NCBI RefSeq assembly: GCF_039566955.1
Contig: NZ_CP154796.1
Span: 1,922,001 to 1,986,000 of the forward strand
Source: Micromonospora sp. DSM 45708
Lineage (GTDB): Bacteria > Actinomycetota > Actinomycetes > Mycobacteriales > Micromonosporaceae
Direction of reading: 5' to 3'
DNA length: 64,000 bases
Within the stretch, counting starts at the first letter, position 1, and every line of letters begins with the position of its first letter. The position numbers and the translations under genes were made by a program. Shown piece after piece: positions 3,001-19,689 of the stretch. The notes beneath the pieces were generated by a model, which made no database searches, was not told the DNA's origin, and saw only the letters and a list, made by a program, of their open reading frames with translations.

Positions 3001-6000
3001 TCGGGATCAGTCCGCGAGAGGCCGTGGCGATGGATCCGCAGCAGCGGCTGCTCTTGGAGGTCTCCTGGGAAGCGCTGGAGCGGGCCGGGATCGACCCGTC
3101 CGGGCTACGCGGCTCGGACACCGGCGTGTATGTGGGTACTACCGGGCAGGACTACGTCTCGGTGATCGGCGACGCGCAGGCCGGCAGCGAGGGACATCTT
3201 CTTACCGGGAATGCGGCGAGTGTCATGTCGGGGCGGGTGGCGTACACCCTGGGTCTGGAGGGTCCGGCGGTGTCGGTGGATACGGCGTGTTCGTCGTCGT
3301 TGGTGGCGGTGCATTTGGCGGCGCAGGCGTTGCGGTCGGGTGAGTGTTCGATGGCCCTGGCCGGTGGTGTGACGGTGATGGCCACGCCGGGAGCGTTCGT
3401 GGAGTTTTCCCGGCAGGGTGGGTTGGCCGCTGACGGGCGGTGTAAATCGTTCGCGGACGCCGCTGACGGCACAGGCTGGGGTGAGGGCGTCGGAATCCTG
3501 GTGTTGGAGCGGTTGTCGGATGCCCGTCGGCGGGGGCATCAGGTGTTGGCGGTGGTGCGGGGCAGCGCGGTCAATCAGGATGGTGCCTCCAACGGGTTGA
3601 GTGCCCCGAACGGTCCGTCGCAGCAGCGGGTGCTCCGTCAGGCTTTGGCGAATGCGCGGTTGACGCCCGGCGACGTCGACGTGGTGGAAGCACACGGCAC
3701 GGGCACCACCCTGGGTGACCCGATCGAAGCGCAGGCGCTGATCGCCGCGTACGGCCAGGACCGGCCCGCGGAACAGCCGTTGCGGTTGGGGTCGGTGAAG
3801 TCGAACATCGGCCACACCATGGCAGCCGCGGGCGTCGCTGGGATCATCAAGATGGTGTTGGCGATGCGGCACGGGCTGATGCCCAGGACACTGCACGTGG
3901 ACACCCCGTCCACCCACGTGGACTGGTCGGCGGGGTCGGTGCGGTTGCTGACCGAGGCCACGCCATGGCCGGCCAGCGGCCGGCCGCGGCGGGCTGGGGT
4001 GTCCTCGTTCGGGATCAGCGGCACCAACGCCCACCTCATCCTCGAAGAAGCCGAACCGTTCGAACTGCTGCAGGTCGCACCGGCTGACCCGGCGGGCTCG
4101 GGTCAGGAGTCGCCGGCGGTCCCGCTGCCGGGCGGTGGGGTGGTGCCGTGGCTGTTGTCGGCTAAGTCCGAGGTGGCGTTGCGGGCGCAGGCGCAGCGGT
4201 TGGCCGGGTTCGTGGCTGACCGGCCCGAGGTGGAGCCGGTGGTGGTGGGGCGGGCGTTGGCGGCCCGGTCGGTGTTCACGCATCGGGCGGTGGTGCTTGG
4301 CCGGCATCAGCCAGCGTTGTCGGACGGGCTGCAGGCGTTGGCTGCGGGTGCTCAGGTGTCGGGGGTGGTGACCGGCGTCGCTGGGTCCGGCGGACTGGCG
4401 GTGGTGTTTTCCGGGCAGGGGAGTCAGCGGGTTGGGATGGGCCTGGGCTTGTATGAGGCGTATCCGGTGTTCGCGGAGGCGTTCGATCAGGTCTGCGCGT
4501 CCTTTGACCAGCATCTCGATCGGTCGTTGCAGGACGTGGTCGCGGGCGAGCCGCGGCTGCTGGACCAGACGTTGTATGCCCAGGCGGGGCTGTTCGCGGT
4601 GCAGGTGGCGTTGTTCCGGTTGGTCGGCTCGTGGGGGGTGGCCCCGCAGTGTCTGGCCGGACACTCGATTGGTGAGTTGAGCGCGGCGTATGTGGCCGGG
4701 GTGTGGGATCTGCCTGATGCGGTGGCGGTGGTGGCCGCCCGGGGCCGCCTGATGCAGGCGCTACCCGCTGGTGGCGCCATGGTCGCGTTGACCGCCACCG
4801 ACGCTGAAGCCCATGAGTTGATCGCCGGGCACACGGACCTGGTAGGGGTGGCGGCGGTCAACGGCCCTCGCTCGGCGGTGATTTCCGGTGACCAGGATCT
4901 GGTCCTGGACCTGGCGCGGCAGTGGCGAGACGCCGGTGGCAAGGCCCGGCAGTTGAAGGTCAGTCACGCGTTCCATTCGCCGTTGATGGAGCCGATGTTG
5001 GCCGAGTTCGCCCAGGTGTTGGCCGAGGTGGTCTGGCGGGAGCCGGCCATCCCGGTGATCTCTGGCGCCCCCGACGCGGACGTGACTGATCCCGGATATT
5101 GGTTGGCGCACGTCCGCCAGGCGGTGCGGTACTACGACGCGGTGACGGCGCTGCGGGAGCGAGGCGTGGGTGTCTTCCTCGAACTGGGCCCGGACGGCAC
5201 GCTGACCTCGATGGCCGACACCCCCGATGCAGGTGTGTGGCTACCGGCGTTGCGTGCTGAGCGGGACGAGCCGCAGACGTTACTGACCGCAGTCGCCGGT
5301 GTTCACGTACACGGCGGGACGGTGGACTGGCCGACACTGCTCGGCACGAGTGCCGGTGGGCGGGCTCTGGAACTGCCGACCTACCCGTTTCAGCATCAGC
5401 GGTTCTGGCCGCAGACCGTGGCCGGCGGTGTGGGGGATGTTCGGGTGTTGGGGCTGGGTTCGGTTGATCATCCGTTGTTGCGTGCGACGGTGTCGTTGGC
5501 TGATGGGGACGGGGTGGTGTTGACCGGTCGGTTGTCGCTGTCGGCGCAGCCGTGGCTGGCTGAGCATGTGGTGTTGGGTTCGGTGTTGTTGGCGGGCACG
5601 GCGTATGTGGAGTTGGTGATGTACGCCGGGGACCAGGTCGGTTGTGGCTTGGTGCGGGAGTTGACGCTGCAGACCCCGTTGGTGTTGCCGGAGCAGGGTG
5701 GGGTGCAGGTGCAGGTGTGGGTCGGTGATCCCGGCCAGGATGGTCGACGGCCGGTCAACGTGTACTCCCGACCGGAGGGCGCGGAGGGTGTGGGGGGTTC
5801 GTGGGTTCGGCATGCCACGGGTGTGTTGAGCCCGCAGGCCGGTCGGGTTGCGGCGGGGTTGGGGCAGTGGCCGCCGGCCGACGCGCGGCCGGTGGCTGTT
5901 GATGGTCTGTATGAACGGTTGGCCGACGGCGGGTACGTGTACGGGCCGGTGTTCCAAGGCCTTCGGGCGGTGTGGCGTGGCGAGCGGGATGTGTATGCCG

Positions 6001-8900
6001 AGGTGACGCTGCCCGAGCACGTCGAGACCGGCGGGTTCGGGTTGCATCCGGCGGTGTTGGACGCGGCGTTGCATCCGATCGGGTTGACCGGGCTGCTCGG
6101 CGACGACGATGGCGGGGCGGTGTTGCCGTTCGTGTGGAGCGGGGTGCGGCTGCATGCGACCGGGGCGAGCACGGTGCGGGTCCGGCTGACACCGGCCGGC
6201 GAGGGTGGTATCGCGGTGGCGGTGTTCGACGCCGCCGGCCAGCCGGTGCTGACCGCGGACTCGCTGGTGCTACGGCCGGTGACCACCGACCAACTGGGCG
6301 CCGGGGTACTGGACGCGGCGCAGTCACTGTTCGCCGTGGAATGGGTACCGCTGCCCGACGCGGAACCCGACACCACGATGGCTGCCGAACCGGTCTGGGC
6401 ATGGCACGGGCAGGTTGATGGTGAGCTGCCCACCGTCGTGGTCGCCGAGCTACCAGCGGCGGGCGAGCTATCGGCTGCGGGCGATGGTGTCGGTGTTGTT
6501 GAGGCCACGCATGCGGCGAGCGCGTTGGTGTTGGGTTGGGTGCAGGACTGGCTGGCCGATGTGGCCACGGACGGTTCCCGCCTGGTGGTGCTCACCCGTG
6601 GCGCTACCGATGGCAGTGACCTGGCCGCGGCTGCGGTGTGGGGTCTGGTCCGTTCCGCGCAGTCCGAACACCCCCACCGATTCATCCTGCTCGACCTCGA
6701 CGATCACACTGACCACGGCACCGACCACGGCAGCGAACTGGGCAGGATCCTGGCGGCGGTGCTCGCCAGCGGCGAACCCGAGATCGCGGTACGCGGCGAC
6801 CTGTATACCCGGCGGCTGGCCCGGGCCGGTGGTAGCGGCCGGCTGCCCCTGCCCGGCTCTGACGGGTTGCCGGTGGGGTTGGATGCGGGTGGCACGGTGG
6901 TGATCACTGGTGGGACCGGGGTGCTGGGTGGATTGGTGGCCCGGCATCTGGTCACCACACACGGGGTCAGGCACCTGTTGTTGTTGTCCCGGCGGGGCCC
7001 GGCCGCGGCGGGGGCGGCGGAACTGGTCGGTGACCTGACGGAGCTGGGTGCGCGGGTGCAGGTGGTGGCGTGTGACGTCGCTGACCGCAAAGCCCTGGCC
7101 GAGGTGCTGGCGGCGGTACCGGCCGGGCATCCGGTGGTCGGGGTGGTGCACACCGCGGGGGTGCTTGATGACGGGGTGGTCGAGGCGTTGACGCCGCAGC
7201 GGCTGGAGAGGGTACTGCGGGCCAAGGCCGATGCGGCGTGGTGGCTGCACGAACTGACCCGGGACATGGATCTGGCGTTGTTCGTGGTGTATTCGTCGGC
7301 GGCGGCCACGTTCGGGTCACCGGGGCAGGGCAACTACGCCGCGGCCAACGCCGTCTTGGATGCCTTGGCGCTGCGGCGGCAGACCGAGGGTCTGGTGGGG
7401 CAGTCGTTGGCGTGGGGGCTGTGGGCCCAGCAGTCGGCGATGACCGGGCATCTCGACGAGGCCGACCTGGACCGGATGCGACGCAGCGGCATCCTCCCCA
7501 TCTCCTCCGAGCAGGGCCTGGCGCTGTTCGACACGGCAATACGCACCAACGAGCCGCAACTCGTGCCGATCCGGGTGGACCTGCCCGCGCTGCGTCGCGC
7601 TGGCGCTGGCGCCGGTGGTGTGCCGCCGTTGTGGCAGACATTGGCCGGCGGTTCGACCCGCCGCACGGCGTCCACCGCCGACACGCCGGTGGATCTGGCC
7701 GCCAGGCTGGCGGCTATGGGCGTCGAGGAACGCCAGCGGACAGTCCTGGAACTGGTACGGACACAGGCCGCGGTCGTGCTCGGCCATCCCGACTCCACGA
7801 CGATCGATTCGGACAGCGCGTTCCGCGAGCTCGGCTTCGACTCGTTGACCGCGGTGGAGCTGCGTAACCGGTTGGCCGCCGCGACCGGGCTGTCGTTGCC
7901 GGCCACGCTGGTCTTCGACCATTCCAGCACCGGAGCCTTGACCGATCATCTGGTGAACAAGCTGGCCGCCGCCGTGAGTGCCGGCAGTGACCGCGGTAGC
8001 GGCGCCGAATCCGCCGGCTCGGGAGCCGTTCGGGTGTCGAACCTCGCGGAGATGTACATGCAGGCCGAGGTCGACGGCAGACACGACGAGTTCTTCGACG
8101 TGATCGGCCGGTTGGCGAAGCTCCGCCAGACGTTCGGTGTGGACACGGCCGACGAGGCGGTCCGGCCTCCCACCCGGATCGCCACCGGCGACGCCAAGCC
8201 CAAGTTGTACCTCTTCAACCCATACGTAGCCCCGGACAGTTTCTCCTATGCGCGGCTGGCATTGGCCTTCCAAGGCACCCGTGACGTGTCGGTGTTGCAC
8301 TCGCCCGGCTTCCATGCCGGTGAGAAGCTGCCGGAGGACATCGAGGCGATGACGCTTGCGTACGTCGAGGCAATCATCCGGGACAACGCGAACGGCGAAG
8401 AATTCGCACTGGGCGGCACCTCCAGCGGTGGGCTGATCGCCCACCGGGTTGCTGCCAAACTGGCGCGGATGGGCATGGCGCCGGCCGGCGTCATTCTCCT
8501 CGACGCACCCTCGCAGGAGGACCATCCCACCGTGTCGGAGGACGGAACGCTGTGGCAGAAGCAGATCTTTGAGGGACTCCGGCGGACTGGCGACGACGGC
8601 GACGACAGTTGGGTCTTCGCGATGGTCCATTACCTCTCCTTCCCGTGGTGGCCCGCCGAGCACATCGAGATACCGACGCTCCAGGTCCGGGCATCCGAAC
8701 GGATCAGCGGACCGAAAGACAACAACGACTGGATGTTCACCTGGAACTACGCCAGCACAGTCACGTTGGCAGATGTGCCAGGGAATCACCTGGAAATAAC
8801 CGACCAATACGCTTCGGTGAGCGCGTTGGCGGTCAATGACTGGTTCTCGCACTCGCCCGAGGAGCGCCCAGCGTTCGTAGACTACCGGGGATCAAAGTAG
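1..8900 (+). CDS. Type I modular polyketide synthase, C-terminal part: AT-KR-ACP / KS-AT-DH-KR-ACP-TE (5' partial)
   Basis: The reading frame is open from the window edge, so the start lies upstream. Domains in order: AT1 (GHSQGE near nt 48-65; YASH at 348-359, the usual methylmalonyl-CoA signature); KR1 (GGTGGLG near 1670; Trp before the catalytic Tyr, no LDD, so A-type); ACP1 (phosphopantetheine Ser at 2595 in GFDSL); KS ([10 protein letters not shown] near 2772, Cys at 3288 in DTACSSS, EAHGTGT and KSNIGH histidines); AT2 (Ser at 4665 in GHSIGE; HAFH at 4965, malonyl-type); DH (His at 5565, Asp at 6060 in LDAALH); KR2 (GGTGVLG near 6905, LDD motif, B-type); ACP2 (Ser at 7842); TE (GTSSG, Ser at 8421; later GNHLE histidine). 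The last module should add an unsaturated malonate unit before release. The DH motif reads HxxxGxxxxA rather than HxxxGxxxxP. No ER is present. The TE makes this the last PKS protein of its line. Confidence 0.97.
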
Positions 8901-9610: not shown

Positions 9611-9713
9611 CCCCGGCCCCGGATCGGGCAGTTCGGCCCACGCGGGCGACGAACCGCGGAGCGGTGCCCGCTGGAGCAGGCCTCGCCGGCACGCTGACTC
9701 TCCCCGTTCTGCC

Positions 9714-10721
9714 TCAACCCTGCTGCTGGGCAAGCGTCTCTGGCGCACTTCCGGCTCGCCGAGGGGCGGGGCCCGGCCGGCCGCCCACCAGGGTGACGCA
9801 CAGGGAGCCAAGTTCACAGCCTCGGCGCAGGGCCGCCGCCGGCGCCGATCCATCGACCCACGCGGCGACGAGGCCGGCCGCGAAGGCGTCGCCGGCTCCG
9901 GTGCTGTCCGCAACCGCGGCCGTCGGGGCTTCGACGCTGTGCACCACGTTGCCGCCCTCGCACCAGAGCGCGCCGTCCCTGCCCAGCTTCACCACCGGAT
10001 TGCGGACGAAACGGGCCAGGTGCCGCGCTGCCTCGCGGGGATCCGCCTTGCCGGTGAGGACCGTCGCCTCGTCGGCGTTGGCGAGCAGAATGTCGACGTC
10101 GGCCACCCATTTGAGGAAGCGGTCCGGCCCGGCCTGGCGCAGTGGTTCAGCGGAGGCGGCGTCCACGCTGATCGTCATACCCCGTCGGCGGGCCTCGGCG
10201 AGCGCCCTCAGCCCGCCCGTCCGCGACGGCGCGTCAAGGAGCGGGTATGCGGACAGGTGAAGGTGGCGCGCGTCGGTGGCCGCGGTGAGGGCCTCGGTGA
10301 TGTCGTGGCCATCCAGGTGAAGGTTGGCACCACGCTGGGACACCATCGTCCGGTCGTGGGTGTGGGACAGCACCAGCACCATTCCGGTGGGGGCGCCGGG
10401 GCAGCGGCGCACGGCGCACCGCACCCCCGCCGCGGTGAGCTCACGTACCCGCGCCTGACCTGCCTCGTCGGTGCCGACGACGCCGACGAGGGTGACCCGG
10501 CGGCCGAGCCAGGCCATCCAGGCGGCGGTGTTGGCGCCCTGCCCGCCGGGCAGCGTCCGCACCGTGCCTGGTGTGTCCGAGCCGAAAGCCAGCGGAGCCT
10601 CCAACAGGGCGACGACATCGGTGGTCACGTCGCCGACGACGACAACCCGCGGTGGTCTCGACGGGCGGCCGGTGGCAGACGGGGGCGTGGGGGCGCTCGG
10701 GATGCCGCGTCCGGTTCGCAT
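9714..10721 (-). CDS. PfkB/ribokinase-family carbohydrate or nucleoside kinase
   Basis: 335 residues from the ATG at 10721, which lies 2 bases past the TGA of the upstream Maf gene; the longer frame is read-through of that gene. The family transfers the ATP gamma-phosphate to a sugar, nucleoside or sugar phosphate. Visible signatures: GDVTTDV near the start, the first PfkB glycine motif (PGGQGANTAAW), NADEATVLTG, and the second PfkB signature with the catalytic Asp and anion hole (DSTGAGDAFAAG). Length and order fit ribokinase/adenosine-kinase-like enzymes. It is the last gene of the eleven-gene minus-strand operon. Beside a Maf pyrophosphatase, a phosphoribosyltransferase and a ribonucleotide reductase, a nucleoside or ribose-type substrate is reasonable, but the sequence alone does not fix it. 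Confidence 0.9.
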   Translation of the reverse strand: MRTGRGIPSAPTPPSATGRPSRPPRVVVVGDVTTDVVALLEAPLAFGSDTPGTVRTLPGGQGANTAAWMAWLGRRVTLVGVVGTDEAGQARVRELTAAGVRCAVRRCPGAPTGMVLVLSHTHDRTMVSQRGANLHLDGHDITEALTAATDARHLHLSAYPLLDAPSRTGGLRALAEARRRGMTISVDAASAEPLRQAGPDRFLKWVADVDILLANADEATVLTGKADPREAARHLARFVRNPVVKLGRDGALWCEGGNVVHSVEAPTAAVADSTGAGDAFAAGLVAAWVDGSAPAAALRRGCELGSLCVTLVGGRPGPAPRRAGSAPETLAQQQG

Positions 10722-10723
10722 GC

Positions 10724-11311
10724 TCACATCCAAAGCTGGACGGTGTGGACGTCCAGTTGGCGCAGGAGGCGTCGCAGGACGGGCAGTGACAATCCTTCCA
10801 AGTTCGACGGATGGCCCGCGACGTGGTCCACGAACCACCCGCCCCGTCCATTGATCTTGAAGGCGCCAGCCACTCGCAGCGGCTCCGAGGTGGCGACGTA
10901 GGCAGCCATCTCGTCGTCAGTGACCTCCCCGAAGCGGACGTCAGTGGAGCACACCTCGGCGGCGGTGTGCCCCGTGCGGGTGTCGACAACGCAGTGCCCC
11001 GTGTGAAAGACGGCCGCCTGGCCCGAGATACGCCGCCACATGTCGAGCGCCACGTCCGGCTCGTGTGGCTTGCCGTACGTCACGCCGTCGAACTCCAGCA
11101 CCGAGTCACAACCGATGACGAGCGCGTCGTCAACGGTGGCAGCGACTGCTGTGGCCTTCGCGTGGGCCAGCCGCTCGGTCAGCTGCCGGGGTGTCTCGCC
11201 CGGTCGGGGTGTCTCGTCCACACCGCTGGTTTGGACGACCGGATCAAGGCCTGCGCGGCGCAGCAGGTCGAGCCGCGACGGAGAACCGGAACCGAGCACA
11301 ATTTTCGTCAT
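10724..11311 (-). CDS. maf: Maf-family nucleotide pyrophosphatase
   Basis: 195 residues. Maf proteins hydrolyse canonical or modified NTPs (dTTP, UTP, pseudo-UTP, 7-methyl-GTP by subclass) to the monophosphate plus pyrophosphate. The N-terminal phosphate-binding signature is present as GSGSPSRLDLLRRAG, followed by VIGCDSVLEF with the catalytic Asp region, YGKPHEPDVAL and the actinobacterial-type HTGHCVVDTRTG. The length is normal for the family. It overlaps the methyltransferase stop by four bases (ATGA) and is followed almost directly by the PfkB kinase, so translational coupling is likely. A housekeeping Maf is common in actinomycetes; its place inside this operon suggests a dedicated copy acting on the pathway's nucleotide. 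Confidence 0.92.
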   Translation of the reverse strand: MTKIVLGSGSPSRLDLLRRAGLDPVVQTSGVDETPRPGETPRQLTERLAHAKATAVAATVDDALVIGCDSVLEFDGVTYGKPHEPDVALDMWRRISGQAAVFHTGHCVVDTRTGHTAAEVCSTDVRFGEVTDDEMAAYVATSEPLRVAGAFKINGRGGWFVDHVAGHPSNLEGLSLPVLRRLLRQLDVHTVQLWM

Positions 11312-12063
11312 ACCGGCTCTCCGGCCCCGGTTCGGCGCTGCCAGATCGCGCCGGCCAACCGTCGCTGGTGCACGGCTCCCGAGCGGACGTCCGGGAAGGA
11401 GAACGTCTCGGACTCCAGCAGCAAGAAGGACGGCTCGATCAGCGTCGCGAGCTCCTCGACCTGGTACACCCGTTGGCGCAAGTCGGTGACCGGATCGTAG
11501 GTAAGGTTCCGCCCCGCGCCGTCCCGGTTGATCAGCGGCAGGTAGTAGCCATCCTCAGGGGTGAGGAAGTACGCGAAGAACAAACCGCGAGGACACAGGA
11601 CACGACGCACCTCCCGCGCGAGCCCTTCGAGTCGCTCGTCCTCGATCACATTCTCGAGGCTGGTGAAGGCAGTCACGAGGCTGAACGTGCCGTCCCGGAA
11701 TGGCAGCAGCGCCTTCATCGACGCCTGCACCAGCCGCGAGGGCCCCACACCCGGACGGGAACGGGCCGCCCGCAACGGCCGGTGGGCGAAATCCATACCG
11801 AAGAAGGCAAGCCCGGTCTCGGCGAGTACGGTGGCGTTCCGGCCGCCGCCGCAACCCAGGTCGAGCAGGCGCGGAGGACCGGCTACTCGCGTGATCCTCG
11901 GCAGTTGCCGGCGGAGGAAGTCGGCACCATGCGACGGCCTGTTGTTAGTCGACGACGAGATGGAATGGCTGACATACTCGCGTTCCCAGAGATCGCGGCT
12001 CAATTGGAAACTCCATTCGTGAAGGTCAGGCGGGACCGCGCCGCGCAGAATCGCCGTGGTCAC
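11308..12063 (-). CDS. Class I SAM-dependent methyltransferase
   Basis: 251 residues from a GTG start that overlaps the stop of the ribonucleotide reductase (GTGA). The SAM-binding motif I is clear (LLDLGCGGGRNATVL), then motif II (FFGMDFAHRPLRAAR), an acidic/aromatic motif IV (FSLVTAFTSLENV) and a post-motif (VRRVLCPRGLFFAYF), the layout of small-molecule Methyltransf_11/25 proteins. The substrate cannot be told. Its position between a class II reductase and Maf points to methylation of a base, a sugar hydroxyl or a late intermediate of the operon's product. Confidence 0.88.
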   Translation of the reverse strand: MTTAILRGAVPPDLHEWSFQLSRDLWEREYVSHSISSSTNNRPSHGADFLRRQLPRITRVAGPPRLLDLGCGGGRNATVLAETGLAFFGMDFAHRPLRAARSRPGVGPSRLVQASMKALLPFRDGTFSLVTAFTSLENVIEDERLEGLAREVRRVLCPRGLFFAYFLTPEDGYYLPLINRDGAGRNLTYDPVTDLRQRVYQVEELATLIEPSFLLLESETFSFPDVRSGAVHQRRLAGAIWQRRTGAGEPV

Positions 12064-13910
12064 TCACAGACAGCGCATGTGCCGTCCGTCGGGTCGCAGC
12101 TCACTTGCGGGGTCGCGGCGGTCTCCGCCGGCCGGGTCGCCTCGATCGCTTGGTCGGCCCGGGACGTGTCCCGGTACACGGTGATTCCCTTGCAACCCAA
12201 CCGCCACGCCTGCTGGTACAGCTCGGCCACCTGCCCAGGTGTTGCGGTACGCGGGAGGTTGACCGTCTTGGTGACGGCGTTGTCCACGTGTTCCTGAAAG
12301 GCTGCCTGCATGCGGACGTGCCATTCGGGGCTGATGTCGTGTGCGGTCTTGTAGACGCGCTGGATCCGCTCCGGTACCAGAGACAGTCCCTGCACGCCGC
12401 CACCGTTGCCGGCGATTTCCTGGAGGAGGTCCGCCTCCTGCACGCCGTGCTCGGCGAGTTCCCGCAGCAGTAGCCGGTTGACGGAGCGAATCTCCCGGCC
12501 GCCGAACACCCGCTGGGTGTAGGACATCGCGAAGAACGGCTCAATGCTGAAACTCGTGTCGAAGATGACAGCGTTGTTGCCGCTCGGCGGCATGGCGAGT
12601 AGGGCCACATTGCGTGGCGGCTCGTCGGCGTCCTTCCATACCGAACGGTGGACGTTGGGGAAGGGGCCCCGCTCTCTCGCCAGCGCGACCGAGGCGTCAT
12701 AGGCGAACTCGCGCATGGACCGGGCCAGCATTGTCGCGGCCGCGAGTGCTTCGTCCGAGTCGTACGGGATGCCGGCCAGCGCCAGGCTCTCTGCCCAGCC
12801 GGTGACCCCGATGCCGATACGTCGGTTGCCGCGCACCGCCTCCCGGATTTCCGCCACCGGGAACCATGACTCGGAGATGGCGTTGTCGATCATCCGCACG
12901 CCGGCTGCCATGATCGTACGTAGCCGGTCGAGGTCGAACAGGTGGACGGCGTCTCGGCGGTCCGCCGGAAGGAGCAGTCGGGGAAGGTTCACATAACCGA
13001 GGTTGCAGGCCTCGTAGGGATAGAGCCCGATCTCACCACAGGGGTTGGTGGCGGCAATGTCGCCCATGGAGTGGCGCATCGGGTTGTTCCGGTTCATCGC
13101 GTCCAGGAAGATCAGCCCGGGGTCACCCGTGTCGCAGGCCAGGTCGCAGGCCGCGGCGAAGAGCTCCCGCGCGGGCAGGGTCCGGACCGCTGCGTCGATG
13201 CGGCGGTTGACCAACGTCCAGTCGGTGTCCGCCTCGACCGCCCGCATGAAGGCGTCGCTCACTCCGAGTGAAATGTTCGTCATGCTCAGCCAGCCGTCCT
13301 GCCGCTTGGCCGCAACGAACTCCAGCACATCAGGGTGGTCGACGTCGAGGATGGCCATGTTGCCGCTTTCGTACCGGCCGCGCTGCCGGAACAGTTTTGT
13401 CGCGTCGTCGAAGAGCTTGAGCAGTGCCACCGGGCCGACGGCGAGCCCGGAACTGCCGCGAACGTCGTCGCCGCGGGGTCGGACATTCGAGTAGTTGAAG
13501 CCGCACCCGCCGCCATAACTCTTGACGATCGACGACTCGGAAAAGGTCCGCAACACGCTTTCCTGAGAGTCTTCGATGGGGAAGACGAAACAGTTGGCCA
13601 TCTGGGGCCGGTGCGTGCCGGCGTTGGCGAGGGTGCGACTGCCCGGGTGGAACTCCAGGCGGGCCATCACCTCGTAGAACGCTGTCGCCCACGGCCCGGC
13701 GGCGTCCGGCTGTTCGGCCCGGGCGAGAGCCCGGGCCACCCGCTGCAGCATCGCTTCCGGGGTTTCCACTACCTGGCCGACGGCATCCCGCGCCAGGTAC
13801 CGCTCCTGCAACAGCAGCTGGGCGTTCTGCGCGAACGCGGCCTGTGGGGTCCGGGTGGAGAGAAGGTCGTGCAGGACTGATTCGAAGAGCTTGGACGTCT
13901 CGACGGGCAT
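12060..13910 (-). CDS. nrdJ: Adenosylcobalamin-dependent (class II) ribonucleotide reductase-like protein
   Basis: 616 residues from the ATG at 13910, chosen because GGGAAGG lies just upstream; a longer frame adds 19 residues. The catalytic cysteines fit NrdJ: the first redox Cys in ANCFVFP (about residue 104), the radical-bearing Cys in NPCGE (about 289), the partner Cys in ACNLGYVNL (about 302), and a C-terminal tail with two close cysteines (CAVC). The GGGCGF and GNMAILDVDHPDVLEF blocks are typical of class II. It should reduce ribonucleotides to 2'-deoxyribonucleotides without a small subunit, using B12. It is shorter than the usual housekeeping NrdJ, and no nrdR or other nrd gene accompanies it, so a specialised role is inferred. 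It lies 93 bases downstream of folE and overlaps the methyltransferase gene. Confidence 0.9.
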   Translation of the reverse strand: MPVETSKLFESVLHDLLSTRTPQAAFAQNAQLLLQERYLARDAVGQVVETPEAMLQRVARALARAEQPDAAGPWATAFYEVMARLEFHPGSRTLANAGTHRPQMANCFVFPIEDSQESVLRTFSESSIVKSYGGGCGFNYSNVRPRGDDVRGSSGLAVGPVALLKLFDDATKLFRQRGRYESGNMAILDVDHPDVLEFVAAKRQDGWLSMTNISLGVSDAFMRAVEADTDWTLVNRRIDAAVRTLPARELFAAACDLACDTGDPGLIFLDAMNRNNPMRHSMGDIAATNPCGEIGLYPYEACNLGYVNLPRLLLPADRRDAVHLFDLDRLRTIMAAGVRMIDNAISESWFPVAEIREAVRGNRRIGIGVTGWAESLALAGIPYDSDEALAAATMLARSMREFAYDASVALARERGPFPNVHRSVWKDADEPPRNVALLAMPPSGNNAVIFDTSFSIEPFFAMSYTQRVFGGREIRSVNRLLLRELAEHGVQEADLLQEIAGNGGGVQGLSLVPERIQRVYKTAHDISPEWHVRMQAAFQEHVDNAVTKTVNLPRTATPGQVAELYQQAWRLGCKGITVYRDTSRADQAIEATRPAETAATPQVSCDPTDGTCAVCE

Positions 13911-14003
13911 GAATCTGGCCTTCCCGGGAGCGGCGGCACATGGCGACCGTGACTGCGGGACGCGCATGGGTGACGGAGCCGGTGACAGGGGGAGCGGAGC
14001 TGA

Positions 14004-14555
14004 TCAACCGCGCCGGACGACCGACCGCGGCGCACCGAACTCGGTCAGCAGGGCGGTGTCGCCGGCGACGAACGAGGTGTCGGTGATCGCCGTCTGGTCC
14101 GATGGGCCGCGACTGCACATGCACATGTGCCGACCCGTCGAGGAGACCCGAACAGCCCGCGCGCCACCGCTGTTCATGATCTCCATGGCGATGTCCTTGA
14201 CCAGGTACTCCTGGATCTGGAACCGCTTGCTGAACGCCTGCACCAGCCGGGGGAATTTGCCCAGACCGAGGATCCGTTGGCCGGGAACGTAGGTGATGTC
14301 CACCTTGCCGAAGAAGGGCAGGAAGTGGTGCGCGCAGATCGAGAAGTAGTTGATGTCGTGGATGTCGACGACGCCGGTGTGCTCGTCCTCGACCAGACAG
14401 GTCGTCTTGAGGACCTTCGAGGTGTCGATGTCGTAGCCGCCGAGCAGTTCCTTGTAGGCACGGACGATGCGCGGCTCGCACTCGGGCCCGGTGTACCAGT
14501 CGAGCGCCCGCTTGTCCGTGGTGATGTTCTGCTCGAGCCATTCGGCGATGGTCAC
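14004..14555 (-). CDS. folE: GTP cyclohydrolase I
   Basis: 183 residues, GTG start preceded by AAGGAGGAG. FolE opens the guanine ring of GTP and forms 7,8-dihydroneopterin triphosphate, the entry to folate, biopterin and 7-deazapurine pathways. The zinc ligands are visible as CAHHFLPF (Cys and His) and HMCMCSRG (second Cys), together with VPGQRILGLGKFPRLV and the family tail. It lies in the middle of the operon, 54 bases after the Nudix gene. No folB, folK, folP, queD or queE-like gene is in the window, so the GTP-derived product must be used by other genes or by the neighbours here. Confidence 0.95.
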   Translation of the reverse strand: MTIAEWLEQNITTDKRALDWYTGPECEPRIVRAYKELLGGYDIDTSKVLKTTCLVEDEHTGVVDIHDINYFSICAHHFLPFFGKVDITYVPGQRILGLGKFPRLVQAFSKRFQIQEYLVKDIAMEIMNSGGARAVRVSSTGRHMCMCSRGPSDQTAITDTSFVAGDTALLTEFGAPRSVVRRG

Positions 14556-14609
14556 GTCTCCTCCTTGGAGGTGGGGGTCTGCGCCCCGACGGTGCGCGGC
14601 GGTTGTGGT

Positions 14610-15008
14610 CTAAAGGCGTCCCTGTTCGCGCAGGTGGTCGAAGATGATCTGATCGACAGGTGAGGTCAGGTGCCGGTCCGCGTAGGTCAGCCACGCCACC
14701 TCGGCGATCTCCGCCGACGCCTCGATGCGGCCCTGGTAGGCGGACTCGTAGCAGCGCATGCGCACCACGACTCCTTCCGGGTGCGCGTCGGCCTGAGCGC
14801 GGAACTCGCCGAGGAAGGTGGCGGTGAGGGGGTCGATGTCGATCGTGAGTTCCTCCTTTGCTTCGCGTACCAGCGTGTCGAGATCGCTTTCGCCGGCCTC
14901 CCGCTTGCCGCCGGGGAGGTAGTAGCGTTCGCGGCCGTGTGACCTGGTGGAGAGCACCCGTCCGTCGGCGAGGTGGATCCAGGCGATCTTGTCAATCTCG
15001 TGCGTCAT
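14610..15008 (-). CDS. Nudix hydrolase
   Basis: 132 residues from the ATG at 15008, which overlaps the end of the phosphoribosyltransferase-like gene by 17 bases; the much longer open frame is antisense read-through of that gene. The Nudix box runs from GGKREAGE to REAKEEL, with the metal-binding REXXEE present and the last glycine of the consensus changed to Thr. Nudix enzymes cleave a nucleoside diphosphate linked to another group. Beside FolE, one attractive role is removal of pyrophosphate from dihydroneopterin triphosphate, as some Nudix enzymes do in folate synthesis; hydrolysis of an abnormal nucleotide is equally possible. Confidence 0.9.
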   Translation of the reverse strand: MTHEIDKIAWIHLADGRVLSTRSHGRERYYLPGGKREAGESDLDTLVREAKEELTIDIDPLTATFLGEFRAQADAHPEGVVVRMRCYESAYQGRIEASAEIAEVAWLTYADRHLTSPVDQIIFDHLREQGRL

Positions 15009-16041
15009 TGTCGTGGAGTCCTTTGGTGAGCCGTTCGTGCACGTAGTCGGCGGTGGCTGTGCTCTCGGCATAGCGCAGTGCGCGGCTGCCAAGGTCGTGG
15101 ATGAGGTCCAGGTCAACGCCGGATTGCGACGCCCAGGGTAGGTGTCGACGCCATCGGGGTGGTGGAAGCGCGTAGGAGGACAGTCCTGCGGCGTGCTTAC
15201 CGAGGGCCGCCAGCGGTACGCCTCGGTCCACAACGGTCGACCACCAGGAGGAGCGATCGTTGACATGGGCGGACGGAGTGAAGGCCCGTACGCCGCCGTC
15301 GTAGATGACGCATCGTTCGAAGAGGCTTCCGACCGAGGCCAGGCGGGCTGCCTCGTACTCCGGCGTCGAGCCGGCCGCCGACCGGAGCAGGTCGAAGGAG
15401 AACCGCGGAAAGGGCACTGTGTCGGGTGTCGGCAACGCGAACAGGGCCTCCAAGAGGACGAGGGTGACCTGCGGCCTCTCGGATGGATCCACGGCGGCGA
15501 CACAGCGCTGGACCGCGTCGACGCCCGCGGCCGAGCCGATCAACACCAGCACGATCGCCCCGGGGCGACGCCGTCGAGCGGTCGTGGCCGCCAGGAGGCG
15601 CGACAGCACCGCGGTCATGGTTCCGCCGCTGGCCATGATGTCACCGGCGAGGACCGGGTCGGCGCCGAGTTCCCAGCGCTCGTACACGACCTTGAGCGGC
15701 GCGGTCGTGGACCGTTCGGTACCGACGAAGCTGACGTCGGCCTCGGCGCCGCACGCGGTGCTGACCGCCTCCTCGACGCCGAAGCTGAGGCCGCCGCGGA
15801 GAATGGTGACCACCGACATCCGGTCGGTGGACAACACCTCGCCGCCGGCCGTGTCGGTGCGGAGAATCATGAGGGCCTCCGCCACCGCGCTACGCACCAG
15901 GTGCCGGTACGCGCTGCCGGTGACCACCGGGTCCGTCAGCAGGCGTCGGGACGGCGCGGTCGAGCAGAGCAGTACGCGGGCAGGGCCTGGGTGCGGGTGC
16001 TCGTAAAGAGCCGTGGCGTCGCCGGTGGCGATGAGTCTCAT
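14992..16041 (-). CDS. Uracil phosphoribosyltransferase-like protein with C-terminal extension
   Basis: 349 residues; the ATG overlaps the stop of the upstream ThDP beta subunit (ATGA). The first 210 or so residues look like the Upp/PRTase fold: TILRGGLSFGVEEAV in the hood/loop region, and LAGDIMASGGTMTAVL in the place of the PRPP-binding loop (DPMLATGGS in UPRTases). The remaining 130 or so residues, from about FPRFSF onward, are extra compared with ordinary uracil phosphoribosyltransferases and match nothing I recognise. The fold predicts ribosylation of a base using PRPP, or the reverse. Tight coupling to the decarboxylase pair suggests the base is made in the pathway rather than being uracil. 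Confidence 0.75.
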   Translation of the reverse strand: MRLIATGDATALYEHPHPGPARVLLCSTAPSRRLLTDPVVTGSAYRHLVRSAVAEALMILRTDTAGGEVLSTDRMSVVTILRGGLSFGVEEAVSTACGAEADVSFVGTERSTTAPLKVVYERWELGADPVLAGDIMASGGTMTAVLSRLLAATTARRRRPGAIVLVLIGSAAGVDAVQRCVAAVDPSERPQVTLVLLEALFALPTPDTVPFPRFSFDLLRSAAGSTPEYEAARLASVGSLFERCVIYDGGVRAFTPSAHVNDRSSWWSTVVDRGVPLAALGKHAAGLSSYALPPPRWRRHLPWASQSGVDLDLIHDLGSRALRYAESTATADYVHERLTKGLHDNDARD

Positions 16042-16622
16042 GTCTTGACCGCCGGCCGCCGGTAGGCCACCCCGCGCCGGTGAGCGATGTACTTCTCGAT
16101 CAGGTACGCGGACTCCACGCCGTCGACCGGCTTGGTCGCGGACGGGGCCGGGTCGTCATTGGTGACGTGACCCACGACGACAACGCCGGGTGTCGGTAGC
16201 CGCTCGGGTAGGTCGCTCGGCGCGTGGACGCTCGCCACCGTGAGACCCACCGCGCCGAAGAGCTTGTGCCAGTCGAGCTGGACGAGGCGGCTCGGCATAC
16301 CACCGGCCGACTCGTAGCGCGCGTTGTCGACAATCACCAGCGTGTGGTTGTCGAGGCCGGGTAGTCGCGCACCCAGCGCGGTCAGCACCGAGAGGTTCAT
16401 CAGGAAGCTGCCGTCGGTGTCGACTCCCGCAACGGGCAGCGGCCGAGCGCCGATCGCCAGACCGGTCGAGAGCGCGGCGACATCGCCCATGGTGTCCGTG
16501 ACCAGCGTGCGATGTGCCGCGAGCCGGTACAACTCCTCGCTGGTGCGGCCGAGTGCGGAGACGAGCAGGCTGTCCGGCGGCAGCCGGTCGAGCAGGGCGG
16601 CGATGAATTCGGACGTCCGCAC
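16038..16622 (-). CDS. ThDP-dependent decarboxylase, beta (cofactor-binding) subunit, sulfopyruvate/phosphonopyruvate decarboxylase-like
   Basis: 194 residues from a GTG start at 16622 that overlaps the alpha-subunit TAG; the longer upstream frame is antisense of that gene. The thiamine-diphosphate motif reads DTDGSFLMNLSVLTALG, followed after about 25 residues by IVDNARYESAGG, matching the GDG-to-N magnesium/ThDP signature of ComE and the C-terminal half of phosphonopyruvate decarboxylases; the first Gly of GDG is Thr here. With the alpha subunit it should decarboxylate an anionic 2-oxo acid to an aldehyde. No PEP phosphomutase or phosphosulfolactate enzyme is in the window, so the substrate is open. 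Confidence 0.82.
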   Translation of the reverse strand: MRTSEFIAALLDRLPPDSLLVSALGRTSEELYRLAAHRTLVTDTMGDVAALSTGLAIGARPLPVAGVDTDGSFLMNLSVLTALGARLPGLDNHTLVIVDNARYESAGGMPSRLVQLDWHKLFGAVGLTVASVHAPSDLPERLPTPGVVVVGHVTNDDPAPSATKPVDGVESAYLIEKYIAHRRGVAYRRPAVKT

Positions 16623-17128
16623 TACCGGCTCCGCAGTTCTTCGACGAACGACGGGTTGGCGATCAGCGCGACGGTGCGTTGGCCGGTGTCGAGTGTGTCG
16701 TATGCCTGCCTGAGCAGATCGGGCAACGCGTGAACCGAGCCGACCTCCGCTGTTGCTGCTGATAGCATCCGCAGATGTGGGTGCATGGTCTCCTCGTGCG
16801 GGAGGCCCCACCAGTTGGCCTCCCCGAAAGCGCCGCGTCGGGCCAGCAGCAGCACCGTGTGCAGACGGTGGCTGAGAGCGAATCGGGCCAGGGTCTCGCA
16901 GGCCCGCCGCAACCCGGAGTTCTCCATCAGCACCAGACTTCGACTGCCGGCGAGGCGGGCGCCGGCGGCGATGCCCACCGCGGTCGCCTCGTCGCAAACC
17001 TGGATGTACGTGATGTCGTCGCGCTCGGCGGCGTACCGGTGCAGGGGAGCCAGCAACGAGTCGGGGACGGCAGTGATCAGGTCGACCCCACTGTCGACCA
17101 ACGTCTGGTAAACGCTCGACGCAGCCAT
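16622..17128 (-). CDS. ThDP-dependent decarboxylase, alpha (pyrimidine-binding) subunit, sulfopyruvate/phosphonopyruvate decarboxylase-like
   Basis: 168 residues from the ATG at 17128. Signatures of the ComD-like N-terminal ThDP domain are visible: GVDLITAVPDSLL, the activating glutamate in CDEATAVGIAAGARLAG, LVLMENSGL and, later, LARRGAFGEANWWGLPHEE. It ends in TAG overlapping the GTG of the beta gene, so the pair is certainly co-translated. Most phosphonopyruvate decarboxylases are one chain of about 370 residues; sulfopyruvate decarboxylases are split like this one. The cupin gene ends four bases upstream of its start. Confidence 0.82.
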   Translation of the reverse strand: MAASSVYQTLVDSGVDLITAVPDSLLAPLHRYAAERDDITYIQVCDEATAVGIAAGARLAGSRSLVLMENSGLRRACETLARFALSHRLHTVLLLARRGAFGEANWWGLPHEETMHPHLRMLSAATAEVGSVHALPDLLRQAYDTLDTGQRTVALIANPSFVEELRSR

Positions 17129-17132
17129 GCCA

Positions 17133-17438
17133 TCACCGCCCGGTGGAGACGAGCTCGACGATGACGTTCGCATACGGTGTGGCACCCACGTTGCGGAGCA
17201 GGTGAGGTAGCCCGGCCTCGTGGTAGACGGCGTCGCCGACCTTGTCGTCGCCCGGCAGGACCGTGCCGTCGGTGCACACCGTCTCCGTCTGGCCGGGGCT
17301 CAGCACGACGTACACGTAGTCGCAGGGGTGCTGATGGATGTCGGTTTCCTGCCCGGGGGCGAGATCCAGCGTCCAGATCCGGACCCGGTCGTCCTGGTAC
17401 ACCAGTTTGGTGCCCACCTGAACGATGTCCGACTGCAT
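17133..17438 (-). CDS. Small cupin-domain protein
   Basis: 101 residues, ATG preceded by GGAGG with good spacing. A single conserved beta-barrel cupin: motif 1 appears as [25 protein letters not shown] sequence with two metal-binding histidines, though the usual downstream Glu is replaced, and motif 2 as [14 protein letters not shown] with another His. Such proteins may be metal-dependent oxygenases, isomerases, decarboxylases or just binding proteins. It sits between the luciferase-like gene (69 bases) and the ThDP alpha subunit (4 bases) and so belongs to the operon. Its reaction cannot be read from the sequence. Confidence 0.85.
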
Positions 17439-17507
17439 GCGTGTCCTCCGTGGAAGCGTCGACGGCTGGTGGAGATCAACGAGAAGCGGCCTGAGCTCCG
17501 GACCCGG

Positions 17508-18401
17508 TCAGAGCCGGGGAGGCCCAAGGGCGATCCGGCCGCGCATCTGCGACAGGTCGCCACGGAAACCGTGCAGGTTCTCGACCCACCAGGTCAGGCC
17601 GGCGTCTGCGTACGTCTTCACCCGGTCGCGGTCGGCGGGCCCACCGTCGCCGTCGCTGTACCCGCCGATGGCGAAGTCGAAATGCGCGTCGCTCGTTCGC
17701 CGATCGGAGACGAAGGAGGCCATTTCTCGGTACTGGTCGACGGGGATCATGGTGGGGGTCCAGGCGCGCCGGCGTTCGAGAGAGAGCCGGCCGGGCAGCA
17801 CGCCGTCCCACCGGGCGGCCCGACGGAACGGCGGGCGGTTCGGCCAGTAGCCGCCCACCCAGATGGGGATGCGGGGCTCCTGCACGGGCCGGGGCAGGAA
17901 GGTGCAGTCCCGGACCTGGAAGTGGCGACCCGCGTAGCTGAACGGTTTCCCCGACCACAACCCCTCGATGACGTCCAAAGCCTCGTCGAGTTTCTCGGCG
18001 CGAACGCGTTCGTCCCCGTCCTCGCCAAAGTCCTCGAACTCCGAATCGGCCGGATAACCGAGCCCGACACCGAGGATGAGTCGTCCCTGCGACAGGTGGT
18101 CGAGGGTGACGGTCTCCCGGGCGACCTTCCACGGCCGTCGTCGCGCCAGAGGTGTCACCATGGGCCCGAGCCGTATGCGGGTGGTCGACGCGGCAATCGC
18201 GGCGAGGCTGATCCAGGGATCCACGATAGGGCCGTCGAAACCGCGCATGAAAGCGAGATGGTCCCACAGGAAAAAGCCGTCCCAGCCGGCGTCCTCGGCT
18301 TCTTTGGCGAGTGTTGCCAGGAATCGCGGATCACCGTAGTCACCGTGCGGAGGAACAGAAACCGCGTACTTCAGCGGACGGTTCAATCGGCTTTCCGGCA
18401 T
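17508..18401 (-). CDS. LLM-class (luciferase-like) flavin or F420-dependent oxidoreductase
   Basis: 297 residues, first gene of the minus-strand operon. It has the bacterial-luciferase TIM-barrel pattern: AEDAGWDGFFLWDHLAF, TTRIRLGPMVTPLARRRPWKVARE, LDHLSQGRLILGVGLGYP, then IWVGGYWPN. This matches FMN/F420-using LLM oxidoreductases. A clear Shine-Dalgarno is not seen before the ATG (GGGGAAC is the best candidate). In this context it may oxidise or monooxygenate the pathway product. Choice of FMN or F420 cannot be made by eye. Confidence 0.9.
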   Translation of the reverse strand: MPESRLNRPLKYAVSVPPHGDYGDPRFLATLAKEAEDAGWDGFFLWDHLAFMRGFDGPIVDPWISLAAIAASTTRIRLGPMVTPLARRRPWKVARETVTLDHLSQGRLILGVGLGYPADSEFEDFGEDGDERVRAEKLDEALDVIEGLWSGKPFSYAGRHFQVRDCTFLPRPVQEPRIPIWVGGYWPNRPPFRRAARWDGVLPGRLSLERRRAWTPTMIPVDQYREMASFVSDRRTSDAHFDFAIGGYSDGDGGPADRDRVKTYADAGLTWWVENLHGFRGDLSQMRGRIALGPPRL

Positions 18402-18775
18402 ACGGTTCCCCGATCATCGTCGTGCATCCTGGATGCGAAGCGTGCGCCTTGAGGCGAACCCGTTGTGGAAGTCGCAATGCGGCCAACCCTAGCTCCGGTA
18501 TCGATGCCGGTCAACGCCAATGCCAATACCGAGGGCGCAAGATGGGATTCCCACACTTGAAACTTTGGTTTATCGCAAAGGCGGAAATCGCTTCGTCCGG
18601 CCATTGGAGATCGGCAGTTCCGGGGGAGCGCGACGACTAGGCAATTCATTCAGCTCGCGCTACCCTTGGCCCCCGACGGGGCTGACGACTGCCGAGCAAT
18701 GGCGGGCCCCTGTCCGGAAGCGTGTCGTCCCGTCCGGCATGCCATCGCGACGTGTACGCGACCCTGGGAGGAATC
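18402..18775. promoter_or_regulatory. Divergent intergenic region before the nucleotide-type operon and the Trm112-like gene
   Basis: 374 bases without a gene. It must hold the promoter of the leftward eleven-gene operon and of the rightward Trm112-like gene. The segment around 18550-18580 is locally AT-rich (contains CTTGAAACTTTGG). I could not pick convincing -35/-10 pairs or an operator. Confidence 0.4.
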
Positions 18776-18928
18776 GTGAACGTCGATCAGGAGCTTCTCG
18801 AAATCCTGTGCTGTCCGGCGGACCGCGGTGACCTCAGCTACTCAGCGGAGAGCGAGGAACTGCGCTGCGACCGCTGTGGGCTGGGCTTCCCGGTCCGTGA
18901 TGGCATCCCGGCGCTGCTCCTGGAGTGA
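18776..18928 (+). CDS. Trm112-family zinc-ribbon-like miniprotein
   Basis: 50 residues from the GTG at 18776, chosen over an upstream ATG because GGGAGG lies directly before it. It shows the whole family pattern: VDQELLEILCCPADRGDL at the start, then LRCDRCGLGFPVRDGIPALL at the end, with paired cysteines. Trm112 partners activate methyltransferases in eukaryotes and archaea; bacterial members are often next to methyltransferases or glycosyl/lipid pathway genes. Here it is divergent from the operon that encodes a SAM methyltransferase, so a partner role is possible but unproved. Confidence 0.88.
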   Translation: MNVDQELLEILCCPADRGDLSYSAESEELRCDRCGLGFPVRDGIPALLLE

Positions 18929-19005: not shown

Positions 19006-19689
19006 CTAGCCAGCAGACGTCGGCAGTGGATGCTGGTCGAGCTGCTTGACCGCGTCGACGATGTCGGGAAAAGCGTCAATGAAGGCATCGACGTAGCGGG
19101 AATCGAAGTCCGCCGGTCTCCGTACCCCGCTCTGCAGGCAGCCGACGAAGTGCATGCCGGCGCCGCCGGCGGCTAGTGCGTCACCCGGTGAATCCCCGAC
19201 GTAAACGCACTGGTCCGGTGGAATGACGGTCGCTGCCAGCAGTTCGTCGAAGGCGCGCGGATCCGGCTTGCGAAAACGCGTGTTGCCGGCGTGGTAGATG
19301 CCACTGACCCGCTCGGCCAGGACATGATCCGGCTCCAGCATGTGCCGAACCTCGTCCTCGGTCCGCGACGTCAACAGGAAGACCGACCGGCCGGCCATCA
19401 CGAATTCGTCCAACGCACGCAGGTTCTCCGGGGGAATCAGATCCAGACGACCGTCGGCGAGGTACCCCTCCAGCGCGCTCTGATAGAGCGCCGAGAACTG
19501 GGCCAGGTCCAAACCGGGTGAGCGTCGGGGCATGGCGTCCAGGAGCGGCTCGCCCCAGGTGGACAGATGCACCTCCCGTTGCATGGGGGGCCGGCCCATC
19601 TCCGCCAGGACTTCATTCTCCAATGCGAACGAGGCGGCCTGAGTGAGGCACAGGGTGTCGTCGACGTCCACAATCACAGCGCGAATCAC
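19006..19689 (-). CDS. HAD-superfamily phosphatase
   Basis: 227 residues from a GTG start. The four HAD motifs are visible: I, VIVDVDDTLCLTQ (nucleophile and acid/base Asp); II, VFLLTSRTE; III, RFRKPDPRAF (Lys); IV, CVYVGDSPGDALAAG. The helical cap between I and II fits the phosphoglycolate-phosphatase/beta-phosphoglucomutase group (subfamily I). It removes phosphate from a small molecule or nucleotide. It is convergent with the Trm112-like gene and may supply a dephosphorylation step for the neighbouring operon. Confidence 0.9.
   Translation of the reverse strand: MIRAVIVDVDDTLCLTQAASFALENEVLAEMGRPPMQREVHLSTWGEPLLDAMPRRSPGLDLAQFSALYQSALEGYLADGRLDLIPPENLRALDEFVMAGRSVFLLTSRTEDEVRHMLEPDHVLAERVSGIYHAGNTRFRKPDPRAFDELLAATVIPPDQCVYVGDSPGDALAAGGAGMHFVGCLQSGVRRPADFDSRYVDAFIDAFPDIVDAVKQLDQHPLPTSAG

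What the first reader, a model, noticed from the sequence alone, without database searches (positions are those of the whole stretch)
9714..18401. Eleven-gene operon that looks like an unrecognised nucleotide-based biosynthetic pathway
Eleven genes on one strand overlap or nearly touch (ATGA, GTGA and TAGTG junctions). They encode FolE, a Nudix hydrolase, an enlarged Upp-like phosphoribosyltransferase, a split ComDE-like ThDP decarboxylase, a cupin, an LLM oxidoreductase, a class II ribonucleotide reductase, a SAM methyltransferase, Maf and a PfkB kinase, with a HAD phosphatase and a Trm112-like protein alongside. The family functions allow a chain: make an unusual base (FolE or decarboxylase), attach ribose phosphate (PRTase), reduce to the 2'-deoxy form (RNR), trim phosphates (Maf, Nudix, HAD), decorate (methyltransferase, LLM). 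I know no described cluster with this set. The product and step order are inference.
Basis: partly seen in the sequence, partly recalled or inferred. Interest (0 to 1): 0.88.

Follow-up and report, generated by a model that had tools for sequence, protein, structure and literature searches.

The report
Triazine deoxynucleoside antibiotic gene cluster
This set of bacterial genes looks like the recipe for a rare mimic of a DNA building block: four of them closely match recently solved enzymes, two of which are described as making a nitrogen-rich triazine base related to a cancer drug, and the extra genes should turn that base into a methylated deoxy look-alike of thymidine.

The parts
17508..18401 (-). 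LLM-class (F420- or FMN-dependent) oxidoreductase; proposed reduction of the triazine C6=N5 bond
   Evidence: Bac_luciferase 151.7 bits; best NCBIfam TIGR03619 F420_Rv2161c 163.0 bits against cut-off 166.9. Orthologues near the core in L004, L005, L006.
17133..17438 (-). AzcA-like cupin; proposed to form 6-amino-4-oxo-1,3,5-triazine-2-carboxylate
16622..17128 (-). AzcB-like ThDP subunit (ComD-like); half of an alpha-imino acid decarboxylase
16038..16622 (-). AzcC-like ThDP subunit (ComE-like)
   Evidence: 9u8q_G 222.5 bits; homologue XF35_00970 in Streptomyces platensis subsp. clarensis, 63% id.
14992..16041 (-). Enlarged UPRT-like phosphoribosyltransferase; proposed to add PRPP-derived ribose 5-phosphate to the triazine base
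   Evidence: Below the curated cut-offs for UPRTase/upp; PRPP-loop-like segment present, and the C-terminal D-G-G-x-R of 13 of 13 relatives aligns to Upp D-A-G-D-R.
14610..15008 (-). Nudix hydrolase, core gene; overlaps the PRTase by 17 bases
   Evidence: NUDIX 45.3 bits; present in 10 of 10 loci; fused to the PRTase in P0020.
14004..14555 (-). GTP cyclohydrolase I-like FolE; proposed removal of guanine C8
   Evidence: 9ujf_A 335.2 bits, 82% id; presumed zinc- and guanine-binding residues (roles recalled) invariant in 10 of 10 sequences aligned, window included; the Ser before the conserved Lys of canonical enzymes is Gly in 10 of 10.
12060..13910 (-). Class II (B12-dependent) ribonucleotide reductase; proposed dedicated 2'-deoxygenation
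   Evidence: TIGR02504 549.9 bits, above cut-off 399.95; catalytic Cys/Asn/Cys/Glu/Cys and C-terminal CxxC kept (roles recalled); own clade, support 1.0. Alternative start at 13967.
11308..12063 (-). SAM-dependent methyltransferase; proposed N5-methylation
   Evidence: Methyltransf_11 62.8 bits; found in the same 3 of 10 loci as NrdJ.
10724..11311 (-). Maf nucleotide pyrophosphatase; proposed trimming of the nucleotide or self-protection
   Evidence: TIGR00172 162.1 bits, cut-off 117.15; 47% identical to the genome's other Maf.
9714..10721 (-). PfkB-family kinase; role unassigned (nucleoside, nucleotide or ribose kinase)
   Evidence: PfkB 180.3 bits; orthologues in L004, L005, L007.
19006..19689 (-). 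HAD phosphatase upstream; proposed 5'-nucleotidase
   Evidence: HAD_2 61.9 bits; kept upstream of LLM in L004 (95%) and L005 (85%).
18722..18928 (+). Trm112p-like small protein, divergent from the operon; role unknown, membership doubtful
   Evidence: Trm112p 53.9 bits; same sequence type at the same place in L004, not in the gene list of L005.

Best explanation
The operon is an s-triazine (5-azapyrimidine) nucleoside biosynthetic cluster: the azc core plus a deoxy/methyl/dihydro tailoring set. FolE removes C8 of the guanine ring of GTP as formate. After ring opening, the AzcA-like cupin forms 6-amino-4-oxo-1,3,5-triazine-2-carboxylate (6-carboxy-5-azacytosine). The AzcB/AzcC ThDP enzyme decarboxylates this alpha-imino acid to 5-azacytosine. 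The UPRT-like PRTase adds ribose 5-phosphate from PRPP. In the variant in this window the LLM enzyme reduces the 5,6 imine, the SAM methyltransferase methylates N5, the class II RNR makes the 2'-deoxy nucleotide, and Maf, Nudix and HAD strip phosphates. The expected product is a 2'-deoxynucleoside of the 5,6-dihydro-5-azathymidine type. Shown elsewhere, as entry titles state: the cupin and ThDP chemistry in homologues. Inferred: the FolE role, the PRTase substrate, all tailoring steps and their order. My estimates: triazine base 0.93; 2'-deoxy product 0.75; dihydro-5-azathymidine itself or a close analogue 0.55.
For: Cupin = AzcA-like; ComD/ComE = AzcB/AzcC-like; FolE is 82% identical to 9ujf, which is 94% identical to the FolE of locus L009 that also carries the cupin and ComD/ComE. 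The carboxytriazine intermediate and an alpha-imino acid decarboxylation were written down (note) before the titles were seen. The dihydro-5-azathymidine idea was held before one search was read: (the latter sent in the same turn as 67) already search for it, and 68 names clarensis. One search then returned XF35_00970 of S. platensis subsp. clarensis, one of six entries named Streptomyces among 33 hits, while in 392 genomes of the genus of S. avicenniae only the seed has a strong PRTase hit. NrdJ and methyltransferase occur in the same 3 of 10 loci. NrdJ of this type is in 3 of 354 Micromonosporaceae genomes, the same three with the Micromonospora-type PRTase. PRTase and NrdJ entries share a contig length in 5 cases, three of them Streptomyces. 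The NrdJ clade is monophyletic, support 1.0.
Against: No metabolite is shown. The identity of the dihydro-5-azathymidine producer is recalled; no held paper found states it. In S. platensis subsp. clarensis I saw only the ComE homologue, not NrdJ, methyltransferase or LLM. No deaminase that would turn a 5-azacytosine into a 5-azauracil derivative is in the operon. The NrdJ loop that I take for the substrate loop is not special to the operon clade. The LLM protein falls just below the F420 subfamily cut-off. One presumed triphosphate contact of FolE (Ser) is Gly here. The title of 9ujf was not seen, so placing FolE in the azc pathway rests on sequence and neighbourhood.
Confidence: 0.75

Rival explanations
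1. The cluster makes a 5-azacytosine deoxynucleoside (5-aza-2'-deoxycytidine type); the LLM enzyme and the methyltransferase act elsewhere, for example in protection, or on another position.
For: Core and NrdJ as above; no deaminase in the operon.
Against: LLM and methyltransferase lie in the same operon and are kept in L004 and L005, whose outer flanks differ.
Confidence: 0.13
2. The product is the ribonucleoside 5-azacytidine; NrdJ, Maf and others are self-protection rather than pathway steps.
For: Cores without NrdJ in the fetched stretch exist (L006, L008, L009, L010, L048, L049); producers of nucleotide analogues often carry protective copies (general knowledge).
Against: An extra RNR gives no obvious protection while two other RNRs are present. 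NrdJ comes with the methyltransferase in the loci compared (3 of 10 have both, none has one alone).
Confidence: 0.08
3. The product is 1-methylpseudouridine, another nucleoside reported from S. platensis var. clarensis.
For: A paper title in the reference list of PMC12322656 names it as a metabolite of that strain; PfkB families include pseudouridine kinase (weak match, 56.5 bits against cut-off 540).
Against: It needs a C-glycoside-forming enzyme, and no operon gene belongs to such a family; triazine-forming AzcA/AzcBC homologues would have no role.
Confidence: 0.02
4. The FolE feeds a pterin or 7-deazapurine product.
For: FolE starts both kinds of pathway (general knowledge; the tubercidin paper PMC6112128 was seen in search listings only).
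Against: No QueD, QueE or QueC among the operon genes; the cupin and ThDP homologues have a stated triazine-related function.
Confidence: 0.02

Closest known systems
azc pathway of a Streptomyces (AzcA cupin, AzcB/AzcC ThDP alpha-imino acid decarboxylase; PDB 9u8n, 9u8o, 9u8q, 9u8r, 9u8s; titles seen, cut by the tool)
   Same: Cupin and both ThDP subunits, with a FolE, in one operon; the same base-forming chemistry is expected.
   Different: The window adds NrdJ, methyltransferase and PfkB. The locus whose FolE is closest to 9ujf (L009, Streptomyces sp. CB02056, 94%) has no orthologue of these in its 21 kb.
5,6-dihydro-5-azathymidine of Streptomyces platensis var. clarensis (recalled, nothing read)
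   Same: 2'-deoxyribose, N-methyl and dihydro-triazine match the NrdJ, methyltransferase and LLM genes; the subspecies carries a ComE homologue.
   Different: Its gene cluster could not be read here; host is Streptomyces, not Micromonospora.
8-azaguanine cluster ptn (PMC7109123; outline, passages and section 12 read)
   Same: A GCH I-like protein proposed to remove guanine C8 for an aza-base.
   Different: ptn uses nitric oxide synthase; the main text has no occurrence of phosphoribosyltransferase, decarboxylase, Nudix or thiamine.
RhiEF phosphonopyruvate decarboxylase and ComDE (PMC12141560, passages read)
   Different: Far below the Azc match and below the curated cut-offs of the sulfo- and phosphonopyruvate decarboxylase models.

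Membership tests
azc-type s-triazine pathway | AzcA-like cupin | tested here: met
azc-type s-triazine pathway | AzcB/AzcC-like split ThDP decarboxylase | tested here: met
azc-type s-triazine pathway | GCH I-like FolE beside the cupin and ThDP genes | tested here: met
   present; Cys74, His76, His77, Cys145, Lys100, Arg103, Gln115, Glu116, Arg149 invariant in 10 of 10 sequences, roles recalled; that FolE belongs to the azc pathway is inferred, the 9ujf title was not seen
azc-type s-triazine pathway | product is 5-azacytosine or its nucleoside | not testable with these tools
   needs metabolite analysis
dihydro-5-azathymidine-type cluster (proposed) | class II RNR with its catalytic residues | tested here: met
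   TIGR02504 above cut-off; residues kept; activity not tested
dihydro-5-azathymidine-type cluster (proposed) | N-methyltransferase | tested here: inconclusive
   a class I SAM methyltransferase is present; its substrate is unknown
dihydro-5-azathymidine-type cluster (proposed) | imine reductase for the 5,6 bond | tested here: inconclusive
   LLM protein, 163.0 bits against the F420 subfamily cut-off 166.9
dihydro-5-azathymidine-type cluster (proposed) | recalled producer strain carries the module | tested here: inconclusive
   ComE homologue XF35_00970 seen; its neighbours could not be read
GTP cyclohydrolase I equivalog (TIGR00063) | score above curated cut-off | tested here: not met
   121.9 against 181.6 bits; the Pfam domain is met, 141.4 against 27
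uracil phosphoribosyltransferase equivalog (TIGR01091) | score above curated cut-off | tested here: not met
   26.8 against 208.35 bits
sulfopyruvate or phosphonopyruvate decarboxylase (TIGR03845, TIGR03846, TIGR03297) | score above curated cut-off | tested here: not met
   68.2 against 147.95; 61.3 against 221.5; 57.5 and 54 against 312.5
8-azaguanine (ptn) type | nitric oxide synthase in the cluster | tested here: not met
   none of the operon genes is one; the rest of the genome was not searched
7-deazapurine nucleoside type | QueD/QueE/QueC in the cluster | tested here: not met
   none among the operon genes; the rest of the genome was not searched

The most novel reading that the evidence does not exclude
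This is the first gene cluster assigned to a 2'-deoxy s-triazine nucleoside (5,6-dihydro-5-azathymidine type): an azc base pathway extended by a dedicated class II ribonucleotide reductase that makes the deoxyribose of a natural product, plus a reductase and a methyltransferase that build a thymidine mimic. ('First' as far as the paper searches show.)
Probability: 0.55. Interest if true: 0.85.

Novelty: new variant of a known kind. Interest (0 to 1): 0.74.

Why it matters
5-Azacytidine and 5-aza-2'-deoxycytidine are clinical drugs (general knowledge). A natural route that puts a triazine base on a 2'-deoxy sugar by a pathway-dedicated B12 ribonucleotide reductase would be an unusual use of that enzyme class, and would make the biosynthesis of a nucleoside antibiotic known since the 1970s (recalled) directly testable. 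The comparison also gives a simple genomic rule to test: azc clusters without NrdJ and methyltransferase should make ribonucleosides, those with both should make methylated deoxynucleosides.

Tried and rejected
Rejected: (1) membership of the PKS at 9..8900 in the cluster: outer flanks differ in L004 and L005. (2) CoM or phosphonate chemistry for ComDE: far below cut-offs. (3) An operon-specific NrdJ substrate loop: the QGRYESGNM-type loop is shared with the less related NrdJ proteins aligned. (4) 8-azaguanine and 7-deazapurine pathways: required genes missing from the operon.

Led nowhere: scan of viral contigs (no relative); plasmids (no match); phages (one 25.9% match in an unannotated record); papers for PDB codes 9UJF and 9U8Q-S (no paper on this pathway; 9IZ3/9IZ4 led to PMC12141560, passages read); papers on the gene set and on triazine nucleosides: no listed paper is on the azc pathway or on dihydro-5-azathymidine biosynthesis; several listings were capped and the library holds only open papers. 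Passages only were read of PMC12648386, PMC7674941 and PMC12322656. Promoter and terminator scan: nothing above expectation.

My errors: the Nudix, ComD and Trm112 queries were wrongly framed or too long; identities are quoted, where Nudix is right. ComD carried 8 residues upstream of its likely start, and 7 in the alignment that was folded.
Full report
Observation. The window lies in a 7.0 Mb single-contig genome; by PRTase and ComE identity its nearest named relatives are Micromonospora. The genome has other copies of the ordinary relatives: two other FolE matches, two other full-length matches to the RNR barrel domain, a true Upp and another Maf. The operon proteins differ strongly from those I compared: FolE 36 and 44%, Maf 47%, NrdJ 29% identity to one of the two other RNRs.

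Conservation. A search of the PRTase gave 36 relatives (only the 8000 best candidates were scored), and one scan of genome contigs gave 15 loci. I compared ten loci: L004-L011 of those 15, plus L048 and L049 from two other Micromonosporaceae genera. Cupin, ComD, ComE, PRTase, Nudix and FolE are all present in 8 of 10. L007 starts inside ComE, so its cupin and ComD cannot be seen; L011 shows only PRTase and Nudix. NrdJ and the methyltransferase are in 3 of 10 (L004, L005, L007), PfkB orthologues in the same three, Maf in 4 of 10 (those three and L006), LLM in 3 of 10 (L004, L005, L006; the upstream part of L007 is not available). Two of the three NrdJ loci are Micromonospora like the window; the third is a Pseudonocardiales genome. 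Outer flanks of the window, L004 and L005 differ, so HAD-LLM-...-PfkB behaves as a cassette; Trm112 is seen beside it in L004 but not in the gene list of L005. A PRTase-Nudix fusion exists (P0020), which ties these two functions together.

Distribution. Strong PRTase hits (E below 1e-70) are in 5 of 354 Micromonosporaceae genomes; five more have weak hits. In 394 genomes drawn from the class only the window's genome has a strong hit; 23 others are weak. In 392 genomes of the genus of S. avicenniae only the seed is strong; one other is weak. NrdJ of the operon type (E at most 1e-120) is in 3 of 354 Micromonosporaceae genomes, the same three whose PRTase hit is below 1e-150. In the protein database 205 NrdJ relatives passed 1e-150 and 120 were listed. 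The operon clade (P0070-P0086, 66-95% id) includes records named Micromonospora, Amycolatopsis samaneae, Streptomyces yaizuensis, Streptomyces sp. G7(2002) and Streptomyces sp. NPDC059788. In a tree of 44 proteins, rooted on one other RNR of the genome and with three partial rows left out, this clade is monophyletic, 18 of 18 members, support 1.0. The A. samaneae entry has no such partner among those compared.

Hypothesis before the test. From the gene set I inferred a thymidine-like s-triazine: 2'-deoxy, N-methyl and dihydro features match NrdJ, methyltransferase and LLM, and the PRTase is UPRT-like. I recalled 5,6-dihydro-5-azathymidine from Streptomyces platensis var. clarensis, and 5-azacytidine from a Streptoverticillium. 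Searches already search for these, which names clarensis, was sent in the same turn, before its answer was read. One search then listed XF35_00970 of S. platensis subsp. clarensis among 33 ComE relatives (63% id, full length), one of six entries named Streptomyces. No record named after the 5-azacytidine producer that I recalled appeared. A later alignment showed that D-G-G-x-R in 13 of 13 PRTase relatives lines up with the D-A-G-D-R segment of the genome's Upp. A note set out a mechanism: FolE removes C8, the cupin makes 6-carboxy-5-azacytosine, and the ThDP enzyme decarboxylates this alpha-imino acid.

Mechanism. Shown elsewhere for homologues (entry titles only): triazine carboxylate formation and alpha-imino acid decarboxylation. 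That the decarboxylated product is 5-azacytosine follows from the structure named. Directly visible here: complete genes with kept residues for FolE (10 of 10 sequences), NrdJ and the cupin histidines (9 of 9 sequences); residue roles are recalled. One deviation: the Ser before the conserved Lys of canonical FolE, named as a triphosphate contact for PtnA (PMC7109123 section 12), is Gly in 10 of 10. Inferred: C8 removal by FolE, as that paper proposes for PtnA; ribosylation by the PRTase; reduction, methylation, 2'-deoxygenation and phosphate removal in the variant. An atom map made by hand suggests how the triazine could arise: guanine N9 closes onto C6 after cleavage of the C5-C6 bond, and C5 leaves as the carboxylate. 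Nudix, Maf and HAD could each trim phosphates; I cannot separate their roles. PfkB has no firm role.

Against. No metabolite is known from this strain in the data used. The operon has no deaminase, so a uracil-type triazine would need a host enzyme. The NrdJ loop is not distinctive. Only the ComE homologue of S. platensis subsp. clarensis was seen. That strain is also reported to make 1-methylpseudouridine (title in a reference list), so a nucleoside cluster there need not be the azathymidine one. The statement that no paper covers this rests, in an open-access library with capped listings.

Verdict.

Noticed in passing
L048:5530-6147 and L049:14216-14833: Beside the core in two other Micromonosporaceae genera lie three conserved genes (by eye); one is thymidylate-synthase-like (PF00303) with the catalytic Cys position aligned to Ser. 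These loci show no methyltransferase or NrdJ orthologue; folate-dependent N5-methylation of a triazine is a possibility.
   Followed up: partly
L014, L015, L016, L018: Distant PRTase relatives in gut bacteria sit directly before a gene that reads like a CodB/NCS1 nucleobase permease (judged by eye; 4 of 7 distant loci): a probable unrecognised nucleobase-salvage phosphoribosyltransferase family. In L013 it lies among FdrA/AllH-like genes (by eye).
   Followed up: partly
L008:12338-13045 and L010:7215-7913: A CRP/FNR-type regulator (PF00027, PF13545) lies downstream of the core in Nonomuraea and Actinomadura, on the other strand, suggesting dedicated control.
   Followed up: no
L006:13047-16328: In S. 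avicenniae the core with Maf and LLM is followed by an L-ornithine/lysine N-monooxygenase and an FMN-binding protein, near genes that read like NRPS: possibly another triazine product.
   Followed up: no
L010:1635-3602: Upstream of the Actinomadura core: a 478-aa protein without Pfam match and a weak nucleoside 2-deoxyribosyltransferase-like protein (13.5 bits, cut-off 28.8).
   Followed up: no
window 9144-9692 (-): Between PfkB and the PKS end lies an open frame that resembles, by eye, a decayed NRPS adenylation domain.
   Followed up: no
P0020 (protein database entry): A 477-aa protein in which the PRTase and the Nudix domain are fused.
   Followed up: no
whole genome G000: No classical thymidylate synthase (PF00303) was found, so the host probably makes dTMP by another enzyme, which may matter for tolerance of a thymidine mimic.
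   Followed up: no
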